34,853 nt of DNA from the IMG/VR virus record IMGVR_UViG_3300028384_000649, positions 1 to 34,853 of that record; one strand, 5' to 3'. Position 1 is the stretch's first letter, and the number at the start of each line of letters is the position of its first letter. The position numbers and the translations under genes were made by a program. This DNA is from a virus. Below are positions 4,406 through 34,171 of the stretch, one piece after another. The notes under the pieces were generated by a model that saw only the letters and a program-made list of their open reading frames with translations, ran no database searches and was not told the origin of the DNA.

Positions 4406-4434
4406 GATTATTTAAAAAATGGGATTATTTAAAA
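4406..4434 (+). repeat. 12-bp direct repeat straddling the capsid gene start codon
   Basis: The 12-mer gattatttaaaa occurs at 4406-4417 and again at 4423-4434, with the ATG of the capsid gene (4419) between the copies. The second copy encodes part of MGLFKT. It may have arisen by slippage, or may shape an unstructured A-rich ribosome-loading site for the most expressed gene. Confidence 0.6.
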
Positions 4435-14300: not shown

Positions 14301-16372
14301 AAGAAATACTTGTTAGAAAAGTAAATGATAATTTAGAGGTTGGATTTAAATCAACGACTTTCACGCAGCCTGCTACAAGCCAAACGTTTACTGTACGGCC
14401 TAAAAATAGCACTACAATTACAGAAGCTAAACCAGCTACCAACGCTCCAACTGTTAATTTAAAAGTTAACTTCAATGCTTATTTAGATAATTTTGATAAC
14501 CCTAAATATATAATACCAAGTGTATCTAATTATGCAGCAGCAAGCGTAAGAAATTTGCCACATTCAACAGATTATCTTTTTCAAGCGGTTATTCCTTTAG
14601 CTACATCAATTAATGATGGTGTTGTAGACTCCGCAAATTTTACAGACGCTGCTAAATTTAAATACATAGAAAAACAAGGAGCTACTAAATTGTCACAGCC
14701 ATCAGCAGGCACGTACAATATTTTAACTGATACTTCAAGCACAAAAGCTATAACTAGTAAGTTCTCCTATGATACAACTAATCATGAACTTACAGCAAAT
14801 GTATTAGTTAATTTACAAAGCGACGCTACAGCAGCTTACTTAGAAGTAGACATTGATTTTTTACTAGATAGTACAAAAAAATACGATGGAACAACTCTTA
14901 AAGATAAGTATCATATAATACAATTAAAACAATTTGTTGATTGTACTCACCAACCCGGAGGTGCAAATGAAGATGAAAAAATATATTCTTCTGATAGTGA
15001 AACAGATAATAATTATCCTAAGTACAGAGCTACCAGCGCAACTCCCAGTGAAGGGGATAGAATATATGTACAATATCAAAGTTCCGATGTTCTTCCTGGA
15101 TATATACTATCAAACAGTGATGGCTATATTATAAAAGATGATATTAATTTATATGATATACGTTCAGAAAAATTAGTTAAAAAAGAAGAGTGCCAAATTA
15201 TTGTAACAGACGATAATAATATTGTTCAGGACCCCGCAAGAGATGCAATATATATGCCTTACTCATTGCCAGCCGGAGGGCCAGGAATGAATTTTTATAA
15301 AGTATATAATGATGTTGTAGTAAATGGCTATCCTATAAAAAGTGATATATATAAGGATCAAAAGGTTAAATTAACTATGGAATGGAACGTAATTGACTTT
15401 TCCAATAGTTCAGCTCCATTTTATAAAGGTGCTCCTTTTTCTACAGAAGCTCAAAAATTTGAATCTAATGCTAAATTAAAAGAATTTATAGAATCAAATA
15501 ATAGCACTACAAATTATAATTATGTAAAAAATCAATTAAGCACCGAAGCTGGTATTGATAATGTATTTGCGGCAGGAGGAAACGTTAAACAATCAAACGT
15601 TATTGGGGATGTTCAAGAAGAACCTATAGTTGTTTCAAACCCAACTACCACTAATAACGGCGTTATAACACAAGTGGTATATTTTAATAGCAACGGAGAA
15701 TCAGCTATTAATCTTGGTGTATATAGAGGCGCAAGAGGTTATGGAGTAGAAATTAAATTACCGGGAGTAAAACCAGAAAGATATAAATTGCTTTACAATT
15801 TATATATAGGTAGAGGGTACGCTGACGCTACAGCGCACCAATATGCTATAGGAGCTGTAACACCTAGAGGATATGGGTATGTAAATCCAACATTACAAAT
15901 ATTTGCACCCCCTATGTACCGTCCTTTACCCGACATATCAGATAATAGCAATCTTGCTCTTTATGGTAGAAACAGTGGAATTTATAGACAAAATGCAGGA
16001 GGTGTTATAAGTTATAATGAGTATGCTTGGCAAAACGGTATATATCGCCCTACTAATAACTTAAGCTATAATTTTTCAGCGTCAAGAGATAATGTAAAAA
16101 TTAAATTATTAGCAGGACCTAGTCTTAATAAACAAGTTCTAGGGGCTAGTGACTTCTATGACGGCAATAAAGATTGGCCCTTTAATTCAACAGATGCAAA
16201 TAAAAAGCATGTTCAAGAAATTATGGGAGCTGGCGGTTTATCATTAAGTGGTAATACGTGGGAATTTATAGATGAATATTTAACCGATATTAAAATAAAT
16301 AGAACTGAATTAAACGGAGGTGATGGTATTTCAGATAGAGATACTAATTACTGGGAGCATGTAACACAATAA
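8381..16372 (+). CDS. Giant tail hub/stabilisation-type structural protein (2663 aa)
   Basis: The N-terminus (MAELKHTFTSGRMNKDLDDR, then LVPNGEYIDALNIQISSSEG) matches a signature I recall from marine phage proteins compared with P22 gp10-type tail stabilisation proteins. The first ~1450 residues are beta-rich and lack membrane segments. Near 1407-1447 is YEGTNGWKAKTIKTD followed by FIEKENKYFANI, again conserved in my recollection. Residues ~1500-2190 consist of Ser/Thr/Asn-rich beta modules. Three segments starting at about 1526, 1625 and 1944 share a pattern: small residue-Tyr, an aromatic or hydrophobic strand, then a closing strand rich in Thr and Phe. These look like Ig-like decorations that could contact the host surface. 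The C-terminal ~470 residues form a distinct region with Gly/Tyr-rich stretches. The start is fused to the upstream stop (TAATG). Receptor binding is inference. Length is far above the P22 gp10 size. Confidence 0.6.
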   Translation: MAELKHTFTSGRMNKDLDDRLVPNGEYIDALNIQISSSEGSDVGAIENLLGNKQLSDLNLTNAVTIGSISYGLKNKIYWFVTSDNADVVLEFDEKTKQITTVLRDAKSTETIELDSVVLTSNIDSELIIENFIDSSISNSFNLQKIPLLTNEEAITNSNVDLTCEDPSISISIPKNTIVKRDENNKLVFKNIIYDYSTYGNIDVTATYTNSGILNFSKSNKITGINIVDDMLFWTDNLNQPRKIYIPKFKKYSLNFPNEDTKIEYEVKNQQTQVKEKLTRPFTEDDILVIKKSPINAPSIELFDNAAGGLVEIQKSLNLFDKAIGDIIKIENLPENPVWKPGDFVNITSEDTDIIVQANVKSIFNDPAVNNLIELTVVTIENETTNESFNFDISLKQKKPLYELNFARFAYRWKYKDGEYSSISPFSVPAFIADEFKYDGKEAYNHGMINKLQKVVLSSFDIPGDDVAEIDILFKETRNNNIYVYETKKKLDFEAPVLPQVASTVVIEKEKIHSIIPNDQLLRAWDNVPRKAKAQDVTANRIIYGNYVQNYDVYNDPIFNIGLTQRKDGLKRTIKSDRNYQLGVVYMDAYNRQTPVLSGDNSSKKIDKANSVVENKFTLQLNHEPPAWAEYFKYYIKDNSGEYYNIAVDRFYQDIENGFTYISVPSSDRNKVTNEHYLLLKKKHGANEPVLSKDNRYKIIDIFNEPPEFITNRKREIYSIGDIVFTDDYSGSGGGSEILQKDQSGSFGAAPAKDYNVIQIKGASGGQNDGGIWDGVPSEDAKQLKQGRFIRFTFGDKESDTYEIKSVQQHPAGSIEIKLTVTEPFGEDVEIIWQKASPNYLGTTSGDRANASGVGILILEEYSAAGDKEFDGRFFIKLKTNATLTDSIVTQSIGGVSYLAKDAILLNGIYPKSYDSYRNDNNYNNSARYKNSALTDPPNHFVVSDGGSTTNGSTAESGKYSTLGGLDYNITLEQSTHRNDGAFDQITRQIKIGDFVRFKNSDGSDHHETVYEVGSIRYHDKKDQKQGGTKKRTIKCVSIRFIDEDGEFKALDEKVCVRNQNTTGNEPVMEILQKLDNEKIIIKEPAIFETEPLESKTDLDIYYETEKAFDIIEHGQIHELDWYNAITFGNGVESNRIRDDFNSIFIDNGVRASAPLAEQFKEEHKFNGLIWSGIINSRSGVNQSNQFNVANPITKDLLPSYGSIQKLFSRDNDIVIYCEDKILKALADKDILYNADGSSNLVASNRVIGNVIPFNGEYGISEVPESFAFYGFRAYSADPKRGVILRLSMDGLTVISANNMNDFFRDRLNNNTIASASYDNRNKLYNISFDNLDTVCFSEGVNGWVSRKSFIPENGISLNNSFYSYNNGEIWEHDNLTVPHNNFYGEQYISSVDFIINDNPSVIKKFKTLGYEGTNGWKAKTIKTDQVTGKEASFIEKENKYFANITQEVKTTAALDQKNFSTQGIGRSVRKTNESDYNTQIGNVSNTTATFVLNTGSTLFNTANVVKTQQPGERISSIVWRINATSGYTIKASEFFGNNFTFEQSSNNVVIATLTLDMLQPNSDQTFNYTISGKANKIPIVQKGTYAINNGNFDFTGQASGSYNVNGDFGVERIINERVITANAGYFLEDKNFTVNNSLVTLQLNKISSSVYKIIEKIYIPSTTTTLNYEVTVAPSEIIVEDLKIFSKTIDTSALNNLKSQRSLVVKGEKDAEVNIIFSDTSSTIFDINVKLDDSGKKELLLDFPAGNDAETYTIKFKALDGSEFDDSFGNQTITISRAAKIRKTVNFVVYFDGSKTESFSITDYINTTHDRAFSIELTLATGTYTIGRQPNNSDVDFGINQNGSSVVLDSLVFAASPNTNKVTIAGDLTISNLIEDETYVLNISNLVGKDVTTTFDFDTNSKDGTGSGNYTADSDTYTVTGGAGLESTPTEASYFWTLTPSASYLFKDDIDGDDFEFLDSSNGSVIDKYALNEEILVRKVNDNLEVGFKSTTFTQPATSQTFTVRPKNSTTITEAKPATNAPTVNLKVNFNAYLDNFDNPKYIIPSVSNYAAASVRNLPHSTDYLFQAVIPLATSINDGVVDSANFTDAAKFKYIEKQGATKLSQPSAGTYNILTDTSSTKAITSKFSYDTTNHELTANVLVNLQSDATAAYLEVDIDFLLDSTKKYDGTTLKDKYHIIQLKQFVDCTHQPGGANEDEKIYSSDSETDNNYPKYRATSATPSEGDRIYVQYQSSDVLPGYILSNSDGYIIKDDINLYDIRSEKLVKKEECQIIVTDDNNIVQDPARDAIYMPYSLPAGGPGMNFYKVYNDVVVNGYPIKSDIYKDQKVKLTMEWNVIDFSNSSAPFYKGAPFSTEAQKFESNAKLKEFIESNNSTTNYNYVKNQLSTEAGIDNVFAAGGNVKQSNVIGDVQEEPIVVSNPTTTNNGVITQVVYFNSNGESAINLGVYRGARGYGVEIKLPGVKPERYKLLYNLYIGRGYADATAHQYAIGAVTPRGYGYVNPTLQIFAPPMYRPLPDISDNSNLALYGRNSGIYRQNAGGVISYNEYAWQNGIYRPTNNLSYNFSASRDNVKIKLLAGPSLNKQVLGASDFYDGNKDWPFNSTDANKKHVQEIMGAGGLSLSGNTWEFIDEYLTDIKINRTELNGGDGISDRDTNYWEHVTQ

Positions 16373-18826: not shown

Positions 18827-21800
18827 ATGTTTGAATTTAATAACAAAGAGTATACGCTCGAACAAATACAAGCGGCTGCCGAACAATCTAATATGAAAGT
18901 TGATGATTATATCAAACAATATAAGATTAAAGAGCTGGGAAAGACAACTCCCACATCACCGGGTGCGGATGTGGAGGAAACTGCAGCGCCCGAGTTAACC
19001 GTTACGGAATCACCATCGGTAGATATTTCTTTGGAATCACCTCAAACAGAAACAGTTGATTCAACTGTAGACTTACAGCCAAAAGATGATAGAGCTGGAT
19101 TTTTAGGATCTATAGCTTTATCTCCGTCAAAAATACCCGCTAATATACAAAAGCAAGGAATTGGGCTTAGGGATATGGTATTATTGACTATTGATAGATG
19201 GATAAATCCGGAACTTAGTAGAAAAGAACGTGTAGCTAAACTTAATGAATATTTTAATACTGATGATGATCCAATTGCTGGATATCCTGGCTTGGGTATT
19301 ATAAGAACAGCTGATACAAAAAACGAAGCAGAAGAAGTTGTAAAAGAAATAAGAAATAAACAATTAAAAACTGAATCTCTTAGTATCTATGAATCCATTG
19401 AAAAAGGAAACGTTGTTGATGCTGCTTTTTTAGCAGCTGATGGCTTAATACAAACATTACCTTCAATAGCTTTTAGTGCGTATGGCGGGGGTGGAATTAT
19501 TGCTCATGGAGCGTTAATCGCTGGTGAAAAATTTAATGATGAGTACTTAAATAATCCAGAAGCTTCGGAATCTGCTATTATTGCAAACGCTCTTGGAACA
19601 GGAGCTATTCAGGCTGGAGCAGATTTTTTATTTAGAGGTTTAATGAAAACCAGTGGGGTTATTGCTAAAGAAGGCTCTGCACAACAAGCTAAGCAATTTC
19701 TTAGTAATGGAATATCAAGAATAGCATCAAAATATTTAGCAGTTCCCGCAGAAGGTTTAGTTGAAGTGTCTCAAGATTTAGCAACAAAAGGGCTTGATGA
19801 TTTAACTTTAGGAAGGGATTTTTATGAAAATATAAATAAGTATGAGCTTATAGATAATTTTCTTTTAGGTACATTAATGCAAGGCGGGGTTACTGTTACA
19901 TCTTATATGTCAGGAGCAAACGCAGATCAAGTTGCTTATGCAGAAGGATTATTAATGCCAGAAAATGTAAAACCTGTTTTAGAGTCTTATGCTGAAAATT
20001 ATTCTAATATAGCTAATCAAATAAGCAAAGAACAAAATCCTGAAGCTCAACAAATATTAAAAAATCAATTATTAAATATAGAAGGTAAAATATCTACGTT
20101 AAGAAGAAAATATAGAACTTCGCTGTATGCAATGAATGATGCTGAGCTAACTGAATATGCTACAAATAAAGATAGAATAGAAAAAATAAAGTCTGGTATA
20201 CAGAATGCTACAACGCGGGAAGGTAAAAGAATTTTATATAAAGAAATAGACAATTTAAATAAAGAGAACGCGGAAATACTTAAGGATGCTACAACAAGAA
20301 AGTTTGAAGAAACAACAGCGCAAGCTGAAGCAGACGCTAAAAAACTTGGTATAGATTTTACTGTTATAGAAACAGCCCAAGAATTTGATGAATATATAAA
20401 ATCAAAGGGTGGTGATAGTGAAGCATTATATAGCGGAAATGACGGTGCAATTTTACCACTACCAAATAATAAACAAGAAATAGTAATAAATCAAGAAATA
20501 GCCTTACAAGAACAGGCTGTAAATGTTGCATCTCATGAATTATTGCATGCTGTTCTTAACCGAACCTTATTAGGAAAAGGTGCGGCTTCTGAAAATTTAG
20601 CAAATGCTTTAATAGAAGAATTAGGTAAAATAGATGTAAATAAAGTTGCAGATTCAGACTTAGCCCGTAGATTGCGAGCTTATTCTGCAGAGCCTGAAGC
20701 TGTCCAATATGAAGAGGTTCTTACCTTGTTTTCCGATGCTTTAGCTACCGGCGATATAAAATTTAATGAAGGACTCTTTACTAAAATAGGTGATACAACA
20801 AGAAGACTGTTCAGTGGCTTTGGTAAAGAAATTAAGTTTAACTCAGGCAGAGATGTATTTAATTTTATAAAAGACTTTAATAATAGTGTAGACAAAGGAA
20901 TAATAAAAGGCGCTAAAAAAGGATTTAAAGGCAAACTTGTTAATGTACAAAAAATACAAGAAGAAATACAAGAAGAGGTAAAGCTGTTTTCTAAATCTAA
21001 AGAAGCTTCTAATAGAGTGCAAGAAATATACGAAGCCCAAGGAGCAGCTAATGCAATGGATATAATTGATGAGTTTAAACCTATAACAAACAAAATTGTA
21101 AATAAATATCGTGATGTTCCTGGGTTTGAATTTGAATTATTAAGAGATGAAATAGAAACAGGCAAGCGGGGTATTCTTGATATGATAATGGCATATACGC
21201 CTGAAAAAGCTAAAGGCGCACCACTCGCCGCATACATAAATAGTTTATTACCTAAAAGAGCAATTGAAGCTGCAAACCGCATATTAGATACGGAATTTAA
21301 AGCAGACGTTACAGAAGCAAGAGGAGTAACAGATACAACGACGGAAGAGGCTACAGAGGCAGTAGAAGAAAAGCCTACAAAAGAACTCACAAGTTTGCGC
21401 AAAGTAATGGAGCTTAATGATGAAATAAAGCCTGTAATATTTAGTGCCGTAAGAAAAACATTTGGGACTGTATTACCTAACGTCGATGATAAGACATTTA
21501 GAAAAGAATTAGAAAAAAGATATAGAACAGAGCTTAAAAAACCTATTGCTAAATTATTTGGTAAAGGGGAAGAGTATAGATCTTTTCTTGCTAATAATTT
21601 TGAATCTATTTACAACGCCTTACCGCAATCTATATTTAATAAAAGATTAAAAGAATTTGCAGAGCCTGTGCTAGATAAAGAAGGAAAGCAATTGCGAGAG
21701 CGCACCGCAGAAGGAAATAAAGTATTTACTAAAAAGAAAATTACAAAAGCTGAATTTATTAAATATTTTTTAGGCGATGATGTTAAAAGATCAACTCAAG

Positions 21801-24800
21801 GCACAAGAAAGACTGCTATAGTTGAAGCTGTAGCTGAGGCATTTGCTTTTGATGCTACTATGGAGGTTTTATCTAAACCTGAAGTTGCTCAAAAAGCAAT
21901 GGATATTGCCGAACTTCAAGGAGTAGAATTATCTGATAATTTTGTTGATAAAGTAAGCAATATAATTGGGCGTCCAGTTAATTTTAAATTTAGTAAAACT
22001 AGAAATGCTCTAAATCTTCCGCCTGGAAGTATAAATTTTAAAAATGAATCTCAAGTATTATCCGCTAGAGGATCTCTACTTAAACTAGCTAAAATGCTAG
22101 GTCCTGAAAAAACAGTTCAATATTTATTACCTACCGTACAAGGAGGCTGGGGCGCTATTGGTGGTAAATTTGTTCCTAAAAAAGATATAAATAAATTAAC
22201 AGTAAGAGAACTTCAGTATTCAGATGATAAAAATTCATTTAGAACAAATCAATTTTTATTTTTAGGAAGAGCTGATTTTTTTGAAGAAGCAAAAAAAGTA
22301 TTTGATAAAGTAGAATATAAAAAAAGAGATAGATCTGTTAATATAAATGGTAATCAAATATCAATACTAGCTGTTCCAACCCAAACGCCTAAAGGATTTA
22401 CTAGTGGAAGTTTTGAGGGTGAAGAATTGCAAAACAGATTATATTTTGCTCAAATACAAAGAGAGGGTTTAAAAAGTATTATAAACACCACAAAGCAGCT
22501 ATACGAAAATAATGATATTACAAAAAATGATGTTGGTATGATTTTAGCATCATTTAATTCAAGTATAAATGCTTTAATTAGAACAGCTGCATATCCAGGT
22601 TTACAGTTTAAAATTGACGGGCTACAAGATAGCGACTATAGATATGAGCATACCCAAACAGCATCTGACACGTTAACAGAGCTTGCTAAATATATAACTG
22701 TAAAAGATTATAAATTTACATTTGATAAAATTATGCAGGGTTTTAGAGTTGCTATAATACCCAAAAAATATGATAATATAGTAAACTCTACAGGTTTTAA
22801 AAGCAATGGGCCAAGAGATAATAACGGCGACTTAATAAAAGGCAAAAGTACAGACGTAATTAGATATAAGCAAAAGGAGGTTGTTGAAAAATTTAAAAAC
22901 GAATCTTTACCTGATTTAGAGTTAGAAGATTTATTAAATGATAATTTATCTATAAAATTTTCTAAATCGTTAGATAAAGAATTTAATCAACTACTACAAG
23001 CAACTACTAAAGTTGACTGGACAAAAGAGTTTTCGCCTGTTAAAGCAAAACTTCTTGGCCGAGGTAAAGGAAAAAAAATCTTTATACCTTACTCTGCAGA
23101 TGATTTTGTTGGTTTACTATACGCAACGCTTGGAAAAAAAGAAGTTGGAAATAAACAAATGGAGTGGTATAATGAAAATTTACTGCGACCATATTCACGA
23201 GCCATTCAACAATACGAAGCTCAAAAACAAAAGTCACTTAAAGAATGGATGGTGCTTAAAAAGGAAGCTGCTAAAGACGTACCCGGTGGTTTGAAAAAAC
23301 AAAATGATTCTGGGTTCACTAATCAGGATTCCGTAAGAATATACATTTGGAGAAAGCAAGGCATGGAAATAGAGGGGTTAGATGCTGAATCAATATCTGA
23401 AAATCTTGAAGTTATTAATAATAACCCTAAGCTAAAAGAATTTGCAGATCGTTTAATGGCTTTGAATCCAGAGGGTTATCCTCCTCCAAGCATAGACTGG
23501 AGTGCAGGTGATATTACTACAGATCTCGTTTCTTATATTAATGATGTTAAGCGTTCAGAATATTTAACACAATGGAAAGAAAATGTTGCTGAAATATTTA
23601 ACGACAGAAATAAAAACAAGTTAAAAGCGCTATATGGAGATGCATATGTTAAAGCTTTAGATAACATGCTTTACCGCATGGATAAGGGCCGCAACAGATA
23701 TAAAGATGCAAGTGATGCTGAAAAAGCATTTATGAATTGGACAAACAATTCTGTTGGAGCAATCATGTTCTTTAATGCTAGATCAGCGGTACTACAAACA
23801 TTATCATCTGTAAACTTTATTAATTTTTCAGATAACAACCCTATAAATGCAAGCTTAGCTTTTTTAAATCAAAAACAATATTGGAATGATTTTTCTACAT
23901 TGTTTAATTCAGATTTCTTAAAGCAAAGACGTACTGGTTTACAAACTGATATTAATGCAGATGAAATAGCCAATGCGGCAGCAACATCTAAAAACAAAGC
24001 ACGGGCAGTATTAAGCGCAATACTTAAGTTTGGTTTTACACCAACACAAATTGCAGATAGTTTTGCTATTGCTTCAGGTGGCGCAACGATGTATCGTAAC
24101 CGCATTAAAAAATATTTAAAAGAAGGATTAAGTAAAGAAGAGGCAGAAACAAAAGCATTTACTGACTTTCAAGAAATTGCAGAAGAAACACAGCAATCAG
24201 CAAGACCTGATAGAATATCAATGCAGCAAGCAGGGTCATTAGGGCGCCTTATACTAGCTTTTGGTAACACACCTATGCAATATGCTCGGTTAACTAAAAA
24301 AGCCACGTTAGATTTAATTAATGGGCGGGGAGATTGGAAAACAAATATTAGTAAGATTGCATATTATAGTGTAATACAGAATATTATATTCTCTGCTTTA
24401 CAACAAGGTATGTTTGCGCTACTGTTTGATGATGAAGATGATAAAGAAGTGCAATCAAGATTATTCAGAATAGGCAATAGTAGTGCTGACACTTTACTTC
24501 GTGGGATAGGTGTTTATGGTGCCGCTGCAGCCACTGTTAAGAATATGATATTCAAAATTATAGAAGAGTCTGAAAAATCAAGGCCTGATTATAAGCAATT
24601 AGCAATAGAGGCAACTTCACTATCACCGCCAATCAACTCTAAATTAAGAAAACTTGAGTCAGCTGGTAAAACTTTTACTTATAAGCAATCAAAAGAAAAA
24701 GTATTTACAGAAGGATTTAGTTTAGAAAACCCAGCGTTTTTAGCAGCCGGTAAAGTTGTGTCTGCAGGAACAAACCTACCCGCTGATCGTGTTGTTCAAA

Positions 24801-24994
24801 AAATGGATCACATATATACAGCAATGCAACCCGAAACTGAATTATGGCAAGGTATTGCATTAGCACTTGGCTGGGGCGAATGGGAATTAGGCTTAATTGA
24901 AAAACAAACGAAAAAAAGCCCTAAACCAAAAACAACTTTTAAAACAAAAAGTTTTCAAAAGGGATTTAAAAGAAAAAAATTTAAAACAAACTAA
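18827..24994 (+). CDS. Giant ejected 'polyvalent' virion protein with metallopeptidase motif (2055 aa)
   Basis: This is the probable third and largest member of the ejection cassette, carried in the virion and delivered with the DNA. The N-terminus (FEFNNKEYTLEQIQAAAEQS) is a short module seen on other large phage virion proteins, from memory. A small-residue hydrophobic stretch lies at about 201-236. A zincin motif HELLH at 570-574 sits in VNVASHELLHAVLNRTL, with a plausible third ligand in EEVLTLFSDAL downstream, so a metallopeptidase domain covers roughly 510-680. Three FSK[S/T] motifs at 721, 1055 and 1378 fall at apparent domain joints. The C-terminal third is helical, with hydrophobic segments near 1640-1670 and 1844-1867 (IAYYSVIQNIIFSALQQGMF) that could form a membrane channel. 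No lytic transglycosylase or RNA polymerase motif was seen. Ejection function is inference; the peptidase motif is direct. Confidence 0.6.
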   Translation: MFEFNNKEYTLEQIQAAAEQSNMKVDDYIKQYKIKELGKTTPTSPGADVEETAAPELTVTESPSVDISLESPQTETVDSTVDLQPKDDRAGFLGSIALSPSKIPANIQKQGIGLRDMVLLTIDRWINPELSRKERVAKLNEYFNTDDDPIAGYPGLGIIRTADTKNEAEEVVKEIRNKQLKTESLSIYESIEKGNVVDAAFLAADGLIQTLPSIAFSAYGGGGIIAHGALIAGEKFNDEYLNNPEASESAIIANALGTGAIQAGADFLFRGLMKTSGVIAKEGSAQQAKQFLSNGISRIASKYLAVPAEGLVEVSQDLATKGLDDLTLGRDFYENINKYELIDNFLLGTLMQGGVTVTSYMSGANADQVAYAEGLLMPENVKPVLESYAENYSNIANQISKEQNPEAQQILKNQLLNIEGKISTLRRKYRTSLYAMNDAELTEYATNKDRIEKIKSGIQNATTREGKRILYKEIDNLNKENAEILKDATTRKFEETTAQAEADAKKLGIDFTVIETAQEFDEYIKSKGGDSEALYSGNDGAILPLPNNKQEIVINQEIALQEQAVNVASHELLHAVLNRTLLGKGAASENLANALIEELGKIDVNKVADSDLARRLRAYSAEPEAVQYEEVLTLFSDALATGDIKFNEGLFTKIGDTTRRLFSGFGKEIKFNSGRDVFNFIKDFNNSVDKGIIKGAKKGFKGKLVNVQKIQEEIQEEVKLFSKSKEASNRVQEIYEAQGAANAMDIIDEFKPITNKIVNKYRDVPGFEFELLRDEIETGKRGILDMIMAYTPEKAKGAPLAAYINSLLPKRAIEAANRILDTEFKADVTEARGVTDTTTEEATEAVEEKPTKELTSLRKVMELNDEIKPVIFSAVRKTFGTVLPNVDDKTFRKELEKRYRTELKKPIAKLFGKGEEYRSFLANNFESIYNALPQSIFNKRLKEFAEPVLDKEGKQLRERTAEGNKVFTKKKITKAEFIKYFLGDDVKRSTQGTRKTAIVEAVAEAFAFDATMEVLSKPEVAQKAMDIAELQGVELSDNFVDKVSNIIGRPVNFKFSKTRNALNLPPGSINFKNESQVLSARGSLLKLAKMLGPEKTVQYLLPTVQGGWGAIGGKFVPKKDINKLTVRELQYSDDKNSFRTNQFLFLGRADFFEEAKKVFDKVEYKKRDRSVNINGNQISILAVPTQTPKGFTSGSFEGEELQNRLYFAQIQREGLKSIINTTKQLYENNDITKNDVGMILASFNSSINALIRTAAYPGLQFKIDGLQDSDYRYEHTQTASDTLTELAKYITVKDYKFTFDKIMQGFRVAIIPKKYDNIVNSTGFKSNGPRDNNGDLIKGKSTDVIRYKQKEVVEKFKNESLPDLELEDLLNDNLSIKFSKSLDKEFNQLLQATTKVDWTKEFSPVKAKLLGRGKGKKIFIPYSADDFVGLLYATLGKKEVGNKQMEWYNENLLRPYSRAIQQYEAQKQKSLKEWMVLKKEAAKDVPGGLKKQNDSGFTNQDSVRIYIWRKQGMEIEGLDAESISENLEVINNNPKLKEFADRLMALNPEGYPPPSIDWSAGDITTDLVSYINDVKRSEYLTQWKENVAEIFNDRNKNKLKALYGDAYVKALDNMLYRMDKGRNRYKDASDAEKAFMNWTNNSVGAIMFFNARSAVLQTLSSVNFINFSDNNPINASLAFLNQKQYWNDFSTLFNSDFLKQRRTGLQTDINADEIANAAATSKNKARAVLSAILKFGFTPTQIADSFAIASGGATMYRNRIKKYLKEGLSKEEAETKAFTDFQEIAEETQQSARPDRISMQQAGSLGRLILAFGNTPMQYARLTKKATLDLINGRGDWKTNISKIAYYSVIQNIIFSALQQGMFALLFDDEDDKEVQSRLFRIGNSSADTLLRGIGVYGAAAATVKNMIFKIIEESEKSRPDYKQLAIEATSLSPPINSKLRKLESAGKTFTYKQSKEKVFTEGFSLENPAFLAAGKVVSAGTNLPADRVVQKMDHIYTAMQPETELWQGIALALGWGEWELGLIEKQTKKSPKPKTTFKTKSFQKGFKRKKFKTN

Positions 24995-25875: not shown

Positions 25876-25903
25876 AAGGGGCCGCAAAGCCCCTTAATTT
25901 TTT
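25876..25903. terminator. Bidirectional terminator between convergent arms
   Basis: Arms 25876-25882 and 25889-25895 pair (aaggggc/gcccctt) around a six-base loop. A T-run follows on the + strand (25898-25903) and an A-run precedes (25873-25877), giving a T-run on the - strand. It ends both the late + transcripts and the - metabolic operon, and its T-run touches the nrdA stop at 25902-25904. Confidence 0.9.
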
Positions 25904-27644
25904 ATCCATCACAACTTATACAATCAGGATTCATAGCATTAGCAGCTATATCACCGCGTAATACCGATTCGGTCCTCATATAATACAAGGTTTTTATACC
26001 TCTTTTCCATGCTTCCAAATGAATCTGATTAATCCATTTAGGCGTGGCTACTGACGGAAAAGCTAAATTCAAACTAACAGACTGATCTATATAGTCTTGT
26101 CTTATACCAGCTTGATTAATCAATTCTAATTGATTAATTTCTTTAAATGTTTTAAATACATTTTTTACTGGTTCTCCTTCTCCTTGGTTAAGTCTTCCAT
26201 TGTAATCGTAAAACCATCCATCAAGTTGTTCAATTCCTTGAACGGATCCACCATCTTCCAGAATTTTGTCCCAAGTTTCTTTATTATCGATACCAATTTT
26301 TCTTAATATTTTTTTAAGTTCTTTATTTTTTCTAATAAAAGTACCCTTTGCTGATTGCTCTGTAAAAACATTTGCAGCCCAAGGTTCTATTCCAGCAGAA
26401 ACATTTCCGCTTAATTTTGAATTTGATACAGTAGGTGCAATAGAACGGAGATGAGTATTGCGCATCCCAGTTCCAGCACACCATAAAGGCTCACCGTAAA
26501 CCTCTGCGAGGTTTCTTGACGCTCTTTCGGTTTCAATTTTAATTTTGCTAAATATTTCACGTGTTTTAAATTGAGCTAATAAACTTTCAAAAGCTATCCC
26601 ATTCTTCTGTAATAGGCTGTGCCAACCAAGGACACCTAATCCAAGAGCCCGCCCTTTTTCCGCACTGCGTACAGAGTTCTCGAACCCCTTCATATTCTTC
26701 GCTCGCTGGATAAATTCTTCTAGCACACCGTCCAGGAACCATACCGCGTCGTAAATTAAATTCGTGTTCTTCCATTCGTCATATTTATCTAAGTTAACAG
26801 ATGAAAGACAACAAACAAAAGAGTGTGATTCATCTGTATGTAATGTTATTTCGCTACATATATTTGTCATATGAACTTTAAGTCCATTTGTTTTATAAGC
26901 TTCTGGGTTAACTTTATTTGTGTTTCCCTTAAATAAGATATAAGGTTCTCCAGTTGCTTTACGCTTTTGGAGTAGTTTCCCCCATTTTCTTCTAGCATCT
27001 TTATCTCCGCTTTCAAGTCTTCGCATAAACTTGTCACCGACCACAGCGCACTGATGGAGATTGAGTGATTGTCTGTTAACATCGCCTTTTGGTTCTCTAA
27101 TTTCCAACCATTCTTCAAAGTCGGCATGGTCAATGTTAATATTAACTGATGCAGCTCCTCTTCTGACAGATCCTTGATTAGTGGCAAGTATTGTCGAATC
27201 GTATATCTTGCAAAAAGGTACCACTCCGTCACTTGTTCCATTACCTGTAATTTTAGCGCCGGCGGGTCTAATCATATTTACTCCTATTCCAACACCGCCT
27301 CCATGCTTGGCTAAGAGCATCATTTCTAAATTTTTATTACCTATATCTTGTATACTATCCGCAACATCAATACCAAAACAACTTATAGGTAAACCTCTGT
27401 CTGTGCCTGTATTAGAAAGCACTGGTGAAGCTAAACACAGCCACCCATCCCATATGTATTGAAAAAACTTTTCAGCTAATTCTGGCTTGTATAAACGCCT
27501 TGCTACAGCATTAGCCACACGCCAATATGCTTCTTTAGGCGATTCGCCTTGATATAAATAACCGCCGGATATTGTTTTTTTGTAAACTTCAGTATCTCCC
27601 CAAATAGGGTAATCTTCACCTTTTTTCCAGTCGTTATTCCACAT
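25902..27644 (-). CDS. nrdA: Ribonucleotide reductase class I large (alpha) subunit
   Basis: This subunit reduces ribonucleoside diphosphates to deoxy forms for phage DNA synthesis, with NrdB supplying the radical. At 580 residues it is much shorter than E. coli NrdA (about 760) and lacks the N-terminal ATP-cone; the protein starts nearly at the catalytic barrel. Key residues are visible: C89 in GLPISCFG (first redox Cys), N261/C263/E265 in MTNICSEI (active-site triad), C278 or C279 (partner Cys) and Y554/Y555 in LYYMRTES (radical transfer). C575 and C578 form the C-terminal CISC shuttle. The substrate-specificity region HGGGVGIGVNMIRPAGA is present. It overlaps the upstream 70-aa gene by 11 nt and is the last gene of the - operon before the terminator. 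Missing the ATP-cone predicts escape from dATP feedback through alpha. Confidence 0.96.
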   Translation of the reverse strand: MWNNDWKKGEDYPIWGDTEVYKKTISGGYLYQGESPKEAYWRVANAVARRLYKPELAEKFFQYIWDGWLCLASPVLSNTGTDRGLPISCFGIDVADSIQDIGNKNLEMMLLAKHGGGVGIGVNMIRPAGAKITGNGTSDGVVPFCKIYDSTILATNQGSVRRGAASVNINIDHADFEEWLEIREPKGDVNRQSLNLHQCAVVGDKFMRRLESGDKDARRKWGKLLQKRKATGEPYILFKGNTNKVNPEAYKTNGLKVHMTNICSEITLHTDESHSFVCCLSSVNLDKYDEWKNTNLIYDAVWFLDGVLEEFIQRAKNMKGFENSVRSAEKGRALGLGVLGWHSLLQKNGIAFESLLAQFKTREIFSKIKIETERASRNLAEVYGEPLWCAGTGMRNTHLRSIAPTVSNSKLSGNVSAGIEPWAANVFTEQSAKGTFIRKNKELKKILRKIGIDNKETWDKILEDGGSVQGIEQLDGWFYDYNGRLNQGEGEPVKNVFKTFKEINQLELINQAGIRQDYIDQSVSLNLAFPSVATPKWINQIHLEAWKRGIKTLYYMRTESVLRGDIAANAMNPDCISCDG

Positions 27645-27846
27645 TATTTTCTTCTTTTTCTTTTTTGTTTTTTAAATCTTCAGTTAAAGCTTCTATTGCT
27701 TTATCATAATCAGGAAGTTTTTTTACAAGGCTCATAGTTCCAACAGATAAATCTCTTAAATTATTTAATTCTTGTATCATTTGTTGTACATTCTGGCCCA
27801 GTATTTCTATCCTGTTCCACATTTCTATTAATTTGCTTTCTTTCAT
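27634..27846 (-). CDS. Small coiled-coil protein between nrdB and nrdA
   Basis: This 70-residue protein starts with a TAATG fusion to the preceding gene and overlaps the nrdA start by 11 nt, so translation is coupled on both sides. The sequence is helical and charged: KLIEMWNRIEILGQNVQQMI with heptad-like hydrophobic spacing (residues 5-24), then LVKKLPDYDKAIEALTEDLK and a Lys/Glu tail. No membrane segment or cysteine is present. I do not recognise a family. Its constant coupling to the reductase genes hints at a role near nucleotide metabolism, or it may be a neutral passenger. Confidence 0.6.
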   Translation of the reverse strand: MKESKLIEMWNRIEILGQNVQQMIQELNNLRDLSVGTMSLVKKLPDYDKAIEALTEDLKNKKEKEENNVE

Positions 27847-28196
27847 TATGTATTATATAAATAAATTAAATATCCTATTGTTACGTTTATATTAACCGCA
27901 ACTAAGTTCCATTGTTTTAAAACTAAAACTTGTGGAGTTAATAATAAACCAGCTATTACATATGTTATTCCTCCAATTTTACCATAGCTTAATAAATGTG
28001 GGGACATCATCATAAAAGCTGTACCCATATATCCTAATCTAAAAGAAATTTTTTCAACAGCTGTTAATTTTCTGTCTTGTACTAATGCTCTTAAAAATCT
28101 TTGCTTAAATCTATATTCGCATTTTTTACAAGTACGTTTACCATAACGAAATTTATTTGTATTTTTTTCTTTATGGCATTTATTGCATTTCCTCAT
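27846..28196 (-). CDS. Zinc-ribbon plus two-pass membrane protein
   Basis: The N-terminus has CNKCHKEKNTNKFRYGKRTC then KKC, a C-x2-C...C-x2-C zinc-ribbon pattern within residues 2-26. A basic helix follows, then two or three hydrophobic segments: GYMGTAFMMMSPHLL, IGGITYVIAGLLLTPQVLVL and VAVNINVTIGYLIYLY. The ATG at 28196 forms a TAATG with the nrdB stop and is preferred over an upstream TTG at 28202, giving 116 residues. The membrane part resembles small membrane proteins I recall near phage reductase genes, in which LKQWNLV and a final GY-hydrophobic helix recur. Function is unknown. A cytosolic zinc-ribbon tethered to the inner membrane is an unusual combination for a phage accessory gene. 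Confidence 0.65.
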   Translation of the reverse strand: MRKCNKCHKEKNTNKFRYGKRTCKKCEYRFKQRFLRALVQDRKLTAVEKISFRLGYMGTAFMMMSPHLLSYGKIGGITYVIAGLLLTPQVLVLKQWNLVAVNINVTIGYLIYLYNT

Positions 28197-29164
28197 TACC
28201 AAATATCTTCAAAATCTTCTCCCTCGTTTGCTTTGGAATAATCAGTCGGGCGAACAGCAAAAAAATCAGTATGAGTATGCCCCCCGGTAAGATGATAGAA
28301 CCAGTCAAGATTTGCTGCTGCTTTTTCGTCAAACGCAAAGTACTGCCCGAGGTCGAGGCAACCCAGTTCTTGTAATTTTTCATTGAGTCGTTTTCTAATG
28401 AATTGTTTGAGATCGTTGGCCTTAAGGTTTTCAATGTCTCCTTGCTCAAACATTTTATCAATATATCGTTCTTCTGCTTCGAGCATTGTGCTTGCTGCTT
28501 TAATAACATCTTCTCTACAATCTTCTAATAAGTTAGGGATTTCTTCGCACATATGTCTAAATAACTGGCAACCCATTCGGCTGTGCAGTGATTCATCACG
28601 CACACTCCATTTCATTTGTTGTCCAATGCCTTTAAGACAGTTTCTAAGCTGAAAAGAATAAAGCACAGCAAAAGCGGAATATAAAGATACTCCTTCAGCA
28701 AATGCGCTAAAGATGGCCAGCGACTTTCCAATTCCCACAGGATCAGAACCGTCATAGGCAACAAGGTTTTCGAACCGCTCTGCTGTAGCAGGCTCATGAA
28801 GAAATGCTTCAAAGTTTTCAAGTCCTAAAGTTTCGTTTAAATAGCTGTAAGCAACAGCATGAATAGTTTCTTGACTACCAAACATCATAGCCATTTGTTG
28901 TATTTCATGTTTTGGAAACCAAGATACAACTTTTTGTGTCCAATAATCAGATACAGCACATTCTGTTTGAGCAAAACCTAATAGTATATTACCAACTAAG
29001 TTTTTTTCTGATTCTGTTAATTTTTCATTCCAATCCTTAACGTCACCTGACATTGGTATTTCGGTATGCAACCAGAACGCTTGAGCTTGTTTAAGCCATC
29101 CCTCAGTATAGTATTCTGGATATTCAAACGGTTTGTACGCAATTCTTTCATCAAATAATCCCAT
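28196..29164 (-). CDS. nrdB: Ribonucleotide reductase class I small (beta) subunit
   Basis: This radical-generating partner of NrdA has 322 residues. Aligning by hand to E. coli NrdB spacing gives metal ligands E68 (TEC; E. coli D84), E99 and H102 (QETIH; E115/H118), E157 (AEG; E204), E191 and H194 (DESLH; E238/H241). The radical Tyr position is Y106 (H+4; Y122). W31 and D190 match the W48-D237 relay. The C-terminus, TDYSKANEGEDFEDIW, has the mobile Tyr and the acidic tail that binds alpha. The unusual point is Glu instead of Asp at the first ligand while the Tyr is kept, discussed in findings. It starts two bases after the 45-aa gene stop and ends in TAATG with the next gene. Confidence 0.96.
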   Translation of the reverse strand: MGLFDERIAYKPFEYPEYYTEGWLKQAQAFWLHTEIPMSGDVKDWNEKLTESEKNLVGNILLGFAQTECAVSDYWTQKVVSWFPKHEIQQMAMMFGSQETIHAVAYSYLNETLGLENFEAFLHEPATAERFENLVAYDGSDPVGIGKSLAIFSAFAEGVSLYSAFAVLYSFQLRNCLKGIGQQMKWSVRDESLHSRMGCQLFRHMCEEIPNLLEDCREDVIKAASTMLEAEERYIDKMFEQGDIENLKANDLKQFIRKRLNEKLQELGCLDLGQYFAFDEKAAANLDWFYHLTGGHTHTDFFAVRPTDYSKANEGEDFEDIW

Positions 29165-30004: not shown

Positions 30005-30215
30005 CTCTTATATAACACTCTTCAATTTCTTCGCGCAATACAGAACGTGCTTTTTCAATATAATTAACAGCATCCATAAGTTCTTCTTGGATGTGTTTTA
30101 GCCACGTATCTAATGACTGATCATCATCTTCAAGTGTTACTCCGTATTTTTTGAAACCAACGTCTGAGCGTGATTTAATTTTATTAATTACTTGTTCAAT
30201 TATTTTATCTCTCAT
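29988..30215 (-). CDS. Small MazG-like protein (75 aa)
   Basis: The sequence VINKIKSRSDVGFKKYGVTL followed by SLDTWLKHIQEELMDAVNYI (about 35-54) matches short all-alpha phage proteins of the MazG/dUTPase-like superfamily. In that family EE-x2-[DE] (here E44, E45, D48) binds metal in a helical bundle. At 75 residues it is only part of a typical ~100-residue domain, so it may act as a dimer or tetramer. It overlaps the preceding MazG fusion gene by 4 nt (ATG at 30215, stop of the larger gene at 30212-30214). A role in dNTP or alarmone hydrolysis is plausible; substrate is unknown. Confidence 0.55.
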   Translation of the reverse strand: MRDKIIEQVINKIKSRSDVGFKKYGVTLEDDDQSLDTWLKHIQEELMDAVNYIEKARSVLREEIEECYIRDAQEI

Positions 30216-30994
30216 AGTGTATCTTTTACAAATGTTCCGTCAATCATTTTACCAGTTCGATTAGAAATTTCATCATAAGCAGACTGAACACAGCTTTCAA
30301 TGTCGTAACCGAGAAGTTTTGAGAGATTAGTGAGTACAACAACACTATCACCAATAGCGTCAATAATACCTGCTTTATCATCTTTAAGTAATGCAGCGGC
30401 GAGTTCTCCTGTTTCTTCATATAATTTAATTAATTGTGTTTTAGGATCACCTTTATCATAGATGCCACGCTCATCTGCCCAGCTTCTAATGAGATCAAAT
30501 AGCTCAACCTTGTTATATGTAGGTTTCGCTAAAAAAGCTTCATAATAAGCTTTATTATATATAAAACAGCGATCGTTGTTATACATGGATGGTTTAGCAT
30601 TGGCTAATATCCATTTTTTTGTTTCATTATTTATTTCAAACTTACCAAGACTAGTTTCCCATGAGAAGCCGTCGTTTTTATCTAAAACTATTTGTAAGTC
30701 TTGCTTTTCACAGTCAAATGTTGAAGTTTGTTCTGTAGGATTAACTTTCATTGATTTAATTTTTATTAAATTAGTATATAGTTGTCTATCAATTTTATAG
30801 CCGTAAAACTCTTGTAGCTTTCTTTCCATTAATGCAGTCTTATCTACATCTCTTGAAGAAAAAAGAACATCATATTCGTTTTTATTATATCCTTGTTCAA
30901 TTTCAACGCGTTTATTTAAATTACACGTCATTCCAATTTTTTGACCAGGAATATGATAAATATAATAAGTTTTTTTATTGCCAGAGCTTGTCAT
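30212..30994 (-). CDS. mazG: GIY-YIG-like / MazG fusion protein
   Basis: Residues ~164-260 form a MazG NTP pyrophosphohydrolase: FDLIRSWADERGIY, YEETGELAAALL (E193, E194, E197), IIDAIGDSVVVLTNL (D212, D216) and AYDEISNRTGKMIDGTFVKD. This domain cleaves (d)NTPs and possibly (p)ppGpp. Residues ~9-75 look like a reduced GIY-YIG nuclease domain: YYIYH (10-14), KIGMT (19-23), R29 and E57 in MERKLQEFYGYKID. The linker 85-150 has TEQTSTF and NNDRCFIYNKAYYEAF. The start ATG at 30994 overlaps the CAP gene by 20 nt. The MazG half is firm. The GIY-YIG reading rests on motif order only and could be a catalytically silent relative. Confidence 0.8.
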   Translation of the reverse strand: MTSSGNKKTYYIYHIPGQKIGMTCNLNKRVEIEQGYNKNEYDVLFSSRDVDKTALMERKLQEFYGYKIDRQLYTNLIKIKSMKVNPTEQTSTFDCEKQDLQIVLDKNDGFSWETSLGKFEINNETKKWILANAKPSMYNNDRCFIYNKAYYEAFLAKPTYNKVELFDLIRSWADERGIYDKGDPKTQLIKLYEETGELAAALLKDDKAGIIDAIGDSVVVLTNLSKLLGYDIESCVQSAYDEISNRTGKMIDGTFVKDTL

Positions 30995-31388
30995 ATTTTG
31001 CTACTATATAAATATATTCAATATTTTCAGATATTCCATATCCTACGCTTGAACAGTCTGAACAAATTGTTTGATTAAAAGATGCTTCATCAGCATCAAT
31101 AGCCCAGCTTACCGCTGCGTCTAAAAACATACTATTAGGCTTAGATACACCCGTTGTTTTTTTAAAGTAATATAAAGTTTCACCTAATGATCCTGGTGAA
31201 AAATCAAACTCATCTGTTAATGCTATTTGATCTGCCCAAGCTTGAGCTTGTTTATTTAAATCAATATTAATAGTATAAGGATTTAAATTGTAATAGCTTC
31301 TTATAGTGTTTTGAAAATTTAACGCGTCAGCATATTGAGCATTACTAAAAATTGGTAAAAATAATAAAATTAAAATTAGTTTTTTCAT
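30975..31388 (-). CDS. Secreted CAP-superfamily (SCP/PR-1-like) protein
   Basis: This 137-residue protein begins with a signal peptide MKKLILILLFLPIFSNAQ, probably cleaved after A17, in the style common in Flavobacteriia. The mature part follows CAP order: AWADQIALTDEF (the helix 'A-x-x-WAxxLA'), SLGETLYY (the CAP 'GEN' motif, E70), DAAVSWAIDADEASF (the 'aV-x-x-W' helix), NQTICSDCSSVGYGIS and YIYIVAKYD (the final strands). The two usual cavity histidines appear replaced (F63 near FDFSPG and S103 in ASFNQ). C109 and C112 may form a disulfide in the periplasm. The gene starts in an ATGA overlap with thyA. A secreted factor in a nucleotide-metabolism operon is unexpected. Function (envelope modification, superinfection exclusion, host interaction) is unknown. 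Confidence 0.72.
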   Translation of the reverse strand: MKKLILILLFLPIFSNAQYADALNFQNTIRSYYNLNPYTINIDLNKQAQAWADQIALTDEFDFSPGSLGETLYYFKKTTGVSKPNSMFLDAAVSWAIDADEASFNQTICSDCSSVGYGISENIEYIYIVAKYDKLWQ

Positions 31389-32209: not shown

Positions 32210-32471
32210 AATAGTATTTACAAAATTTATAATATTCTGGCCATAATGTATCTTTATCATATAAATGAGGGGCTACATTTGGCTTTTCACCCCGTTTATA
32301 TGGGCCTACATTTATTCCTATACGCCAATGCTCTGCGTCTCCGTTTATACCTAAAGGTGAAATTCTGTAGTTGTTTTGTATACAAAAATCTCTTGCTACA
32401 ATCTCTTCTTCTGAAGGATCATACGAAGGCATCTCATTTCTTTTCTTTTTATTTTTTAACCCACTTCCCAT
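32190..32471 (-). CDS. Small protein of unknown function between helicase and thyA
   Basis: This 93-residue soluble, basic and Tyr-rich protein has an N-terminus MGSGLKNKKKRNEMPSYDPS followed by EEEIVARDFCIQNNYRIS, GINGDAEHWRIGINVGPYKR and a tyrosine/lysine-rich tail (PEYYKFCKYYYDKYRR). The middle GDAEHWRI-x-I-x-x-GPY-K-G-EKPN resembles short proteins I recall in Bacteroidetes phages, but I know no function. It overlaps the helicase 3' end by 16 nt and thyA by 20 nt, so it is translated in the same operon. Confidence 0.65.
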   Translation of the reverse strand: MGSGLKNKKKRNEMPSYDPSEEEIVARDFCIQNNYRISPLGINGDAEHWRIGINVGPYKRGEKPNVAPHLYDKDTLWPEYYKFCKYYYDKYRR

Positions 32472-34171
32472 GGCATAGGTTCATCTATAACAATTTCATT
32501 ATGAGGAATAAAACAACCAGATTTTGGTTCCCATTTAAAATGTGCTTCAGCACCGTTTTCTCCTAAATTTTGAAATTTAACTTTAAGAACTTTTGCTTTA
32601 ACCGTTTTATTATCGTAATCACGGTGAACAAGCAAGCCATGATAAGAAGCATCGTACCACTCACCGCCTCCTTTAATATTATACATAGTTGGTTCTTCAA
32701 TTTTTCCATTTCCATCTTTATACATTTTAGTTGGATGAGCTACAATGATAACTAAAACATCATATTTTTTTGCAAAAATTTCAATTTTAGTAAGGTATTC
32801 CATTGTATACCTATTTACATCTTCTGTTTTAGCATCAACGTCTCTAACTTTATTAAACGGATCAATAACTAGGCACTTAATACCTTTTCTTTTCACTAAC
32901 TCTGCGCCTTTCTTTAAAACTGATTCTAAAGTATAACGCTCCATATCAATAAAGAAAAAGTTATCATTAACGTGCCCAGCTATTTGTTTCCATTTATCTC
33001 CTCCAATATCGGATCTTTTAGGCATATCTTGCCATACTTTACGCATAAGCTTATGAGCATGCAAAAATGTTGGTGCATTTTCAGGTGAAGCAAATGCTGT
33101 TTTCCACCCGTAATTAGCATTATAACCTACAACCATTTGGTCAACAAAATCAGACTTCCCACTAGAAGGAATACCAGTAACAGTAATAAATTGCCCGGTG
33201 TATGTTGAAAATATTTCATCAAAATTTTGTAAGCCAACTTGATAGCCCTTTTTAAATCCATTTTCAACAAAATCTGTAATCTCGCCTTCAATATCGTTAA
33301 GCGTTGTAACATTTTCGAGTGGTACTGGTTTGGCTTTGGTAATACACTGCGCCAGTTTTTCTCGTCCATATTTTAATAAATATTCATTAGCATCTTTACA
33401 ATCTTCAAAGTCTACGATATAACATATTTCCGCTCCTAATCTTCTAACTAATTCAGCACGTAGTGCAACACCTGGTTCATCTTGATCAACAGCTATAATT
33501 ATTTTTTCTTTATCAGTAAAATAATCAATACAGTTATCTAAATAATCTAAATTATTAGAATTTAAAGTGGCTCCATTTGGTACAGATACCACATTAGGTA
33601 TGCCAGCTTCATATAAGCTACAAACATCCATCTCGCCTTCCACAATAATACAATATTCATAACCAACAGTATTATCAATATTATAAAATATTTTTTCGGC
33701 TCCTTTATATAACTTAAAGTTTTTTCTAGCATCACGGTATTTTATGTTTATCAACTCACCCCCGGCATAATAATTGAAATGTATAGCATTTTCTTGCTTA
33801 CCGGTTTGCGGCATATATTCAGGGCCCTCAGTAATTTTTAAATCACTAAGTGTACCCTGAGATATACCACGTGTACCAAACCATTCTACAATCTTACTTC
33901 CTAAATCCTCATGCTTCACTTCTGGTTTTACGTACACTTTATCTGCATTACCTTTTCTTTGATAAGAATGCAGCTGAAAAGTTGAATTACAATTATGACA
34001 CGTACCAAGACCCCGTTCCCAATCATAAGAAGCACACTTACGCTTCTGATTCTCAGGTCTTCTATCAGAAGAACAAAGAGGACAGGTGCCCTCTTTTTTC
34101 CCTATCTGTAGATCGTATTGATTGAATTTATCAATCAAAAAACCATTGATCTCCGTATTATTTATTGTCAT
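32456..34171 (-). CDS. Bifunctional primase-helicase (T7 gp4-like)
   Basis: This 571-residue replication protein has three parts in order. A zinc-binding primase domain uses C30-x2-C33 and C58-x2-C61. A TOPRIM catalytic fold has E178 (VEGEMD) and D229/D231 (AVDQDEPG). A RecA-type DnaB-family helicase has Walker A GIPSSGKS (333-340), Walker B LVIDPFN (D437), VIIVAHPTK (about 474-482) and a C-terminal KGGGEWYDASYHGLLVHRD with the arginine-finger/H4 region. It primes lagging-strand synthesis and unwinds DNA at the fork as a hexamer. Length and architecture match T7 gp4 closely. It begins one base after the SSB-like gene stop and overlaps the next gene by 16 nt. No DNA polymerase is visible in the window, so it presumably lies farther right. 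Confidence 0.95.
   Translation of the reverse strand: MTINNTEINGFLIDKFNQYDLQIGKKEGTCPLCSSDRRPENQKRKCASYDWERGLGTCHNCNSTFQLHSYQRKGNADKVYVKPEVKHEDLGSKIVEWFGTRGISQGTLSDLKITEGPEYMPQTGKQENAIHFNYYAGGELINIKYRDARKNFKLYKGAEKIFYNIDNTVGYEYCIIVEGEMDVCSLYEAGIPNVVSVPNGATLNSNNLDYLDNCIDYFTDKEKIIIAVDQDEPGVALRAELVRRLGAEICYIVDFEDCKDANEYLLKYGREKLAQCITKAKPVPLENVTTLNDIEGEITDFVENGFKKGYQVGLQNFDEIFSTYTGQFITVTGIPSSGKSDFVDQMVVGYNANYGWKTAFASPENAPTFLHAHKLMRKVWQDMPKRSDIGGDKWKQIAGHVNDNFFFIDMERYTLESVLKKGAELVKRKGIKCLVIDPFNKVRDVDAKTEDVNRYTMEYLTKIEIFAKKYDVLVIIVAHPTKMYKDGNGKIEEPTMYNIKGGGEWYDASYHGLLVHRDYDNKTVKAKVLKVKFQNLGENGAEAHFKWEPKSGCFIPHNEIVIDEPMPWEVG

What the first reader, a model, noticed from the sequence alone, without database searches (positions are those of the whole stretch)
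30975..31388. Phage-encoded secreted CAP protein without the usual histidines, inside the DNA-metabolism operon
A signal peptide and CAP-order motifs are clear to the eye, yet the two cavity histidines appear replaced and the context is thyA/mazG. Expressed early with replication genes and exported, it may alter the host envelope, for instance excluding other phages or binding lipids or sterol-like hopanoids. I know of no described phage system of this kind.
Basis: partly seen in the sequence, partly recalled or inferred. Interest (0 to 1): 0.6.

Follow-up and report, generated by a model that had tools for sequence, protein, structure and literature searches.

The report
Histidine-less exported CAP protein in flavophages
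A group of uncultured marine viruses of flavobacteria carries, among its DNA-building genes, a small exported protein with the fold of venom and plant-defence (CAP) proteins but without their metal site; it looks like a conserved, fast-changing gadget for altering the infected cell's envelope, though its job is unproven.

Summary
The 137-aa ORF (30975-31388, minus strand) matches Pfam CAP (E 6e-11), folds as a CAP domain (pLDDT 86.7; best PDB match GAPR-1), and begins with a signal peptide cut before an invariant Gln, as the Bacteroidetes 'Q-rule' predicts. It overlaps thyA by 4 nt and mazG by 20 nt. I found 17 further viral contigs with the gene: 15 in the same thyA-CAP-mazG slot, 2 just after mazG. 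Over 17 distinct phage proteins the second cavity His is always lost, the first in 15, one Glu is kept, and the sterol-binding loop and PxGN motif are gone. The gene is under purifying selection (dN/dS 0.10 to its nearest relative), is the fastest-diverging gene of the operon, and is cleanly absent from close relatives. Degenerate cellular copies occur in 3 of 38 genomes of one flavobacterial genus; one appears to nest inside the phage group. Most likely it is an exported binding protein without metal site that modifies the periplasm during infection; superinfection exclusion of the T4 Spackle kind is the leading, unproven mechanism. Phage CAP genes as such are not new (Bacillus phages Stills and Slash); this lineage and context are.

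The parts
30975..31388 (-). CAP-domain protein, 137 aa, without the two cavity histidines
   Evidence: Pfam PF00188 E 6e-11; AF2 pLDDT 86.7, Foldseek to GAPR-1 E 8e-9; 17 further viral contigs
31338..31388 (-). Signal peptide (residues 1-17 MKKLILILLFLPIFSNA, followed by Q18; Bacteroidetes Q-rule cleavage; no lipobox Cys)
   Evidence: Sequence; Q18 invariant in the alignment; rule from PMC5837995
31385..32260 (-). thyA, thymidylate synthase; overlaps the CAP start by 4 nt (ATGA)
   Evidence: PF00303 E 7.9e-86; coordinates
30212..30994 (-). MazG-domain protein with an N-terminal extra region; overlaps the CAP end by 20 nt
   Evidence: PF03819 E 6.9e-5; phrog_1992 E 3.8e-36
32456..34171 (-). DNA primase/helicase, upstream in the same block
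   Evidence: phrog_239 E 5.5e-85
25902..29164 (-). Ribonucleotide reductase-like large (25902-27644) and small (28196-29164) subunit genes with small ORFs between, downstream in the same block (named by eye, conserved in relatives)
   Evidence: ORF translations and synteny

Best explanation
It is a member of a degenerate CAP lineage carried as an optional gene by a group of marine flavobacterial podovirus-like phages. It is translated in the thyA-mazG block, exported by Sec, cut before Gln and left free in the periplasm (no lipobox, no type IX sorting domain). With both metal-binding histidines and the sterol loop gone, it is not a metal enzyme or a Pry1-type sterol carrier but a compact binding scaffold. 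The most likely job is to bind a periplasmic target during infection and so block entry of competing phages (superinfection exclusion, as T4 Spackle does by binding the incoming tail lysozyme). Shown: fold, family, residue loss, signal peptide pattern, fixed slot, purifying selection, fast divergence, presence/absence. Inferred: periplasmic location, time of expression, binding function, exclusion role.
For: CAP fold and family. Q-rule signal peptide, Q invariant (PMC5837995). Second His lost 17/17, first 15/17, first Glu kept 16/17, PxGN lost 17/17, loop 12-16 against 27-28 residues in most host CAPs. 18 contigs including the window; 16 in the thyA-CAP-mazG slot, 2 after mazG. Purifying selection: dN/dS 0.10 window/L082, 0.10-0.39 in most other pairs, 0.75 in the most divergent pair. 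Fastest-diverging gene of the block: median identity 43% against 61-93% for 14 others. Cleanly absent from close relatives L143 and L144, whose MazG is 85% identical. Precedent: Spackle is an early T4 periplasmic protein that inhibits the incoming gp5 lysozyme (PMC7677548).
Against: No direct functional evidence. No expression data. Fast divergence and patchy presence fit any accessory gene, not only exclusion genes. Cellular relatives exist (L149, L217), so the function may be one that host cells use for something else. No target is identified. Spackle is not claimed to be a CAP protein; the parallel is functional only.
Confidence: 0.38

Rival explanations
1. Mimic or dominant-negative form of a host exported CAP or of its partner: the phage copy competes with a host periplasmic CAP to disarm an envelope stress, protease or defence function.
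For: 294 of 399 genomes of the flavobacterial family carry a CAP gene; the phage lineage joins flavobacterial CAPs in the tree; one cellular copy nests in the phage group, AU p 0.013 against phage monophyly, so genes seem to have moved between the two.
Against: No function is known for the host CAPs; the degenerate subfamily itself is rare in hosts (3 of 38 genomes of one genus; in the 399-genome family sample only G052).
Confidence: 0.2
2. Lipid or hopanoid binder that alters the outer or inner membrane during infection.
For: Some CAP proteins bind sterols and fatty acids; HpVAL-4 lacks the two His yet binds sterol (PMC5893428).
Against: In Pry1 and HpVAL-4 sterol binding is ascribed to the caveolin-binding-motif loop between alpha3 and alpha4; here that stretch is cut to 12-16 residues.
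Confidence: 0.13
3. Accessory lysis or peptidoglycan factor.
For: Exported; a Bacillus phage CAP protein carries a LysM domain (PMC4541274).
Against: It sits in the nucleotide-metabolism block transcribed opposite to the structural genes; no LysM, no catalytic His; no lysis gene beside it.
Confidence: 0.08
4. Host gene caught by chance and decaying in the phage.
For: Both metal-site His lost; nearest cellular copies are also rare and one has an in-frame stop (L150/L201).
Against: dN/dS 0.10 to 0.39 in most pairs, open frames in all 18 contigs, fixed slot in 16 of 18.
Confidence: 0.03

Closest known systems
CAP / SCP-TAPS superfamily (PF00188), GAPR-1/PR-1 type
   Same: alpha-beta-alpha fold; Foldseek best matches GAPR-1 (5vhg, 1smb), P14a, Pry1; Glu of GENLY and Gln of HFTQ kept
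   Different: both cavity His absent in the window protein, alpha3-alpha4 loop shortened by about 12-15 residues, PxGN tail gone, no Cys-rich extension
HpVAL-4 and Na-ASP-1 N-terminal CAP domain (nematode CAPs without the two His)
   Same: CAP central cavity without the two metal-binding His (PMC5893428)
   Different: HpVAL-4 keeps a large sterol-binding loop and a Cys-rich tail; the phage proteins have neither
Phage CAP proteins of Bacillus phages Stills and Slash (LysM + YkwD-like)
   Same: phage-encoded secreted CAP protein, role unknown (PMC4541274)
   Different: LysM fusion and YkwD-type; Gram-positive siphophages; no sequence match to the window protein by tblastn in the phage collection
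T4 Spackle
   Same: small early phage protein exported to the periplasm; proposed here as a functional parallel (PMC7677548)
   Different: target known (gp5 lysozyme); no homology to CAP claimed
Degenerate cellular CAPs L149, L150 and L217 of marine Flavobacteriaceae
   Same: same subfamily, 28-37% identical, second His lost and CxxC in L149 and L217, Gln after the signal peptide
   Different: first His kept; chromosomal or island genes; L149 has an extra N-terminal stretch of about 25 residues; L150 is broken

Membership tests
CAP superfamily (PF00188) | Profile match above Pfam gathering score | tested here: met
   43.7 bits against 21.1, residues 23-129 on profile 1-114 of 117
CAP superfamily (PF00188) | Alpha-beta-alpha sandwich fold | tested here: met
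   AF2 pLDDT 86.7, pTM 0.80; Foldseek GAPR-1 E 8e-9, TM 0.72
CAP superfamily (PF00188) | Cavity tetrad His-Glu-Glu-His (common but not universal in the superfamily) | tested here: not met
   Window F/E/D/S; over 17 phage proteins H1 2/17, E1 16/17, E2 acidic 11/17, H2 0/17
CAP superfamily (PF00188) | CAP2 signature Y-x-P-x-G-N | tested here: not met
   Replaced by KYDK / KYNK, P lost 17/17
CAP superfamily (PF00188) | Secretion signal | tested here: met
   N-terminal hydrophobic segment then A/G/S-Q; Q invariant; by motif, no signal-peptide predictor was available
Pry1-type sterol-binding CAP | Caveolin-binding-motif loop between alpha3 and alpha4 | tested here: not met
   W-to-Q stretch 12-16 residues against 24 in GAPR-1 and 27-28 in most host CAPs
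YkwD-like bacterial/phage CAP (Stills, Slash) | YkwD-type domain with LysM | tested here: not met
   No LysM; Pfam finds only CAP; closest folds are GAPR-1 type
Superinfection exclusion protein | Expression blocks related phages | not testable with these tools
   Needs an infection assay
Superinfection exclusion protein | Exported or membrane protein made early | tested here: inconclusive
   Export signal met; timing only inferred from operon overlap with thyA and mazG

The most novel reading that the evidence does not exclude
A new class of phage superinfection-exclusion or anti-defence factor built on a CAP fold from which metal site and sterol loop have been stripped, exchanged between marine flavobacteria and their phages and evolving under an arms race at the periplasm.
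Probability: 0.3. Interest if true: 0.75.

Novelty: new variant of a known kind. Interest (0 to 1): 0.47.

Why it matters
CAP proteins are known from venom, plant defence and parasite secretions, but little is known of what they do in bacteria. A phage lineage that keeps the fold under selection while discarding the metal site and sterol loop says that the fold has another job, and offers a minimal version of about 120 residues in which to find it. If the job is exclusion of rival phages, it would give an uncultured marine phage group a periplasmic exclusion protein of a fold not known for this role, and suggest what the CAP genes found in about three quarters of the sampled flavobacterial genomes may be for.

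Tried and rejected
tblastn of the CAP protein, of a cellular relative and of a canonical host CAP against 50,697 phage records: no match. A single-protein scan of viral contigs found nothing; it took the neighbouring MazG and portal genes, and then the family alignment, to find the relatives. PHROGs: no family above noise. Isolate Maribacter phage Panino and the assembled genome MW202828 (relatives by portal) have no CAP gene. Decay rejected by dN/dS. The 184-aa reading of some homologues was first taken for a mis-called start: it is a real in-frame extension that is a separate ORF in CAP-less relatives. Phage monophyly against cellular copies rejected (AU p 0.013), with long branches as caveat. 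Paper searches for a phage CAP of this kind or a CAP role in exclusion found none.

Full report
What is there. The window is a 34,853-base virus record. Plus-strand genes are structural: terminase C-terminus, portal (phrog_6547, E 1e-155), a virion structural protein at 4419-5891 (phrog_13704) and further virion proteins; the portal is 44-52% identical to phages of Flavobacterium and Maribacter and to an uncultured podovirus. The minus-strand block carries primase/helicase, thyA, the CAP ORF, a MazG-domain protein, a DUF1064 nuclease-like protein and ribonucleotide reductase-like genes. The CAP ORF at 30975-31388 overlaps thyA by 4 nt and mazG by 20 nt, so all three are almost certainly co-transcribed and translationally coupled (inference from coordinates).

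Family and fold. Pfam CAP matches at 43.7 bits, twice the cut-off. A profile of 13 phage homologues finds GAPR-1, Pry1 and nematode CAPs among solved structures. AlphaFold2 gives pLDDT 86.7 and pTM 0.80, and Foldseek ranks GAPR-1 first (E 8e-9, TM 0.72), followed by plant PR-1 and Pry1. The top entry, 5vhg, is described as a 'pentad mutant' of GAPR-1; in the aligned sequence its two cavity histidines are replaced.

Export. The N-terminus is MKKLILILLFLPIFSNA|QY. The Gln at the cleavage site is invariant in the alignment, as expected for signal peptidase I substrates in Bacteroidetes (PMC5837995). There is no lipobox Cys, whereas several host CAPs look like lipoproteins, and no type IX sorting tail, which some host CAPs appear to have (by eye). 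Periplasm is the predicted place; it was not tested.

The missing site. Aligned with 14 canonical flavobacterial CAPs (all H-E-E-H), 17 distinct phage proteins have lost the second His in all cases (T, S, E or P instead) and the first in 15; the first Glu is kept in 16, the second position is acidic in 11, the Gln of HFTQ is kept in all, the PxGN tail is lost in all, and the stretch from the alpha3 Trp to that Gln is 12-16 residues instead of 20-28 (27-28 in 13 of 14). That stretch holds the sterol-binding loop of Pry1 and HpVAL-4 (PMC5893428). Caveats: the host CAPs compared were the best Pfam matches, so degenerate host copies are under-sampled; a second search with the phage profile over the same sample addressed this in part. 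The GAPR-1 row of that alignment was typed in and agrees with the stretch printed.

Distribution and synteny. The MazG protein led to homologous loci, of which 8 gave a CAP by tblastn. Pfam CAP is present in 14 of 50 related viral records and in three more found with the family alignment: with the window, 18 contigs. In 16 the gene lies between thyA and mazG, in two just after mazG. Close relatives L143 and L144, with MazG 85% identical, lack it and have thyA abutting mazG. Panino and MW202828 lack it.

Selection. Nei-Gojobori dN/dS is 0.10 against L082, 0.10-0.39 for most pairs and 0.75 for the most divergent pair. The gene is kept by selection, but it is the most divergent of 15 genes of the region compared (median identity 43%, others 61-93%).

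Origin. CAP genes occur in 294 of 399 sampled genomes of the flavobacterial family. The phage proteins and L149 form one group among flavobacterial CAPs on a long branch (100/100). Cellular members of this degenerate group were found only in three genomes of one genus (3 of 38): L149, L150 (broken by a stop) and L217. L217, 37% identical to the window protein, sits inside the phage group in the tree (AU p 0.013 against phage monophyly), so the gene seems to have moved between phage and cell. L149 and L217 keep the first His and lack the second, so loss of the second His may predate the phages; direction of transfer is not resolved.

Mechanism. What is shown is a conserved, exported CAP-fold protein without metal site and sterol loop in an optional slot of the replication block. 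From this I infer a binding scaffold acting in the periplasm during infection. Among possible benefits to a lytic phage, exclusion of competitors has the best precedent: T4 Spackle is an early, small periplasmic protein that inhibits the lysozyme of incoming virions (PMC7677548). Patchy presence and fast change fit an arms race but are not specific to it. I give the exclusion mechanism 0.38; mimicry of a host CAP 0.2; lipid binding 0.13; lysis aid 0.08; decay 0.03. Identity as an exported CAP-fold phage protein I hold at about 0.97.

Novelty. Phage CAP proteins as such are known: Bacillus phage Stills encodes a LysM + YkwD-like CAP protein whose role its authors call unknown (PMC4541274); giant viruses and uncultured Caudovirales have SCP-domain proteins. 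His-less CAPs are known in nematodes (PMC5893428). I found no description of this lineage, its host or its operon context, within an open-access library only.

Noticed in passing
L090, L091, L135, L136, L137, L140 (upstream of CAP); L092 about 1938-2075 and L093 about 1850-1987: In one clade the CAP reading frame carries a conserved in-frame N-terminal extension of about 45 aa ahead of the signal peptide (pN/pS 0.51 in frame; other frames have stops); in CAP-less L092/L093 the same sequence is a stand-alone ORF of about 43 aa, so a microprotein is fused to CAP or CAP was inserted behind it.
   Followed up: partly
window protein residues C109 and C112 (about 31053-31064); L149, L217: A CxxC motif (CSDC, CENC, CYSC, CEDC, CKKC, CSEC) stands close behind the lost second His in 7 of 17 phage proteins and in the cellular relatives, and is absent from another phage clade; a possible disulfide or replacement metal site.
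   Followed up: no
L138 5995-6582, L139 6569-6925: In the two contigs where CAP follows mazG, the thyA position holds a thymidylate-synthase-like gene only 23% identical to the window's, perhaps a different pyrimidine-modifying enzyme.
   Followed up: no
8381-16372 (+): The 2663-aa structural protein contains the crAss-like phage muzzle protein C-terminal domain (PF25729, E 9e-12), tying this group to crAss-like tail architecture.
   Followed up: no
18827-24994 (+): The 2055-aa protein carries an HELLH (HExxH) metalloprotease-like motif (seen by eye), with no Pfam support; likely an ejected virion protein.
   Followed up: no
30212-30994 (-), residues 1-100: The MazG protein has an N-terminal part (TYYIYHIPGQKIGMTCNLNKRVE...) that looks by eye like a GIY-YIG-type domain; Pfam did not call it.
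   Followed up: no
L149 1576-8905: The cellular CAP relative lies in a contig with a weak phage/plasmid-type replication protein match, a PD-(D/E)XK nuclease, a DUF2779 protein and a small exported protein; L149 and L150 share a similar small exported neighbour, suggesting a mobile island.
   Followed up: partly
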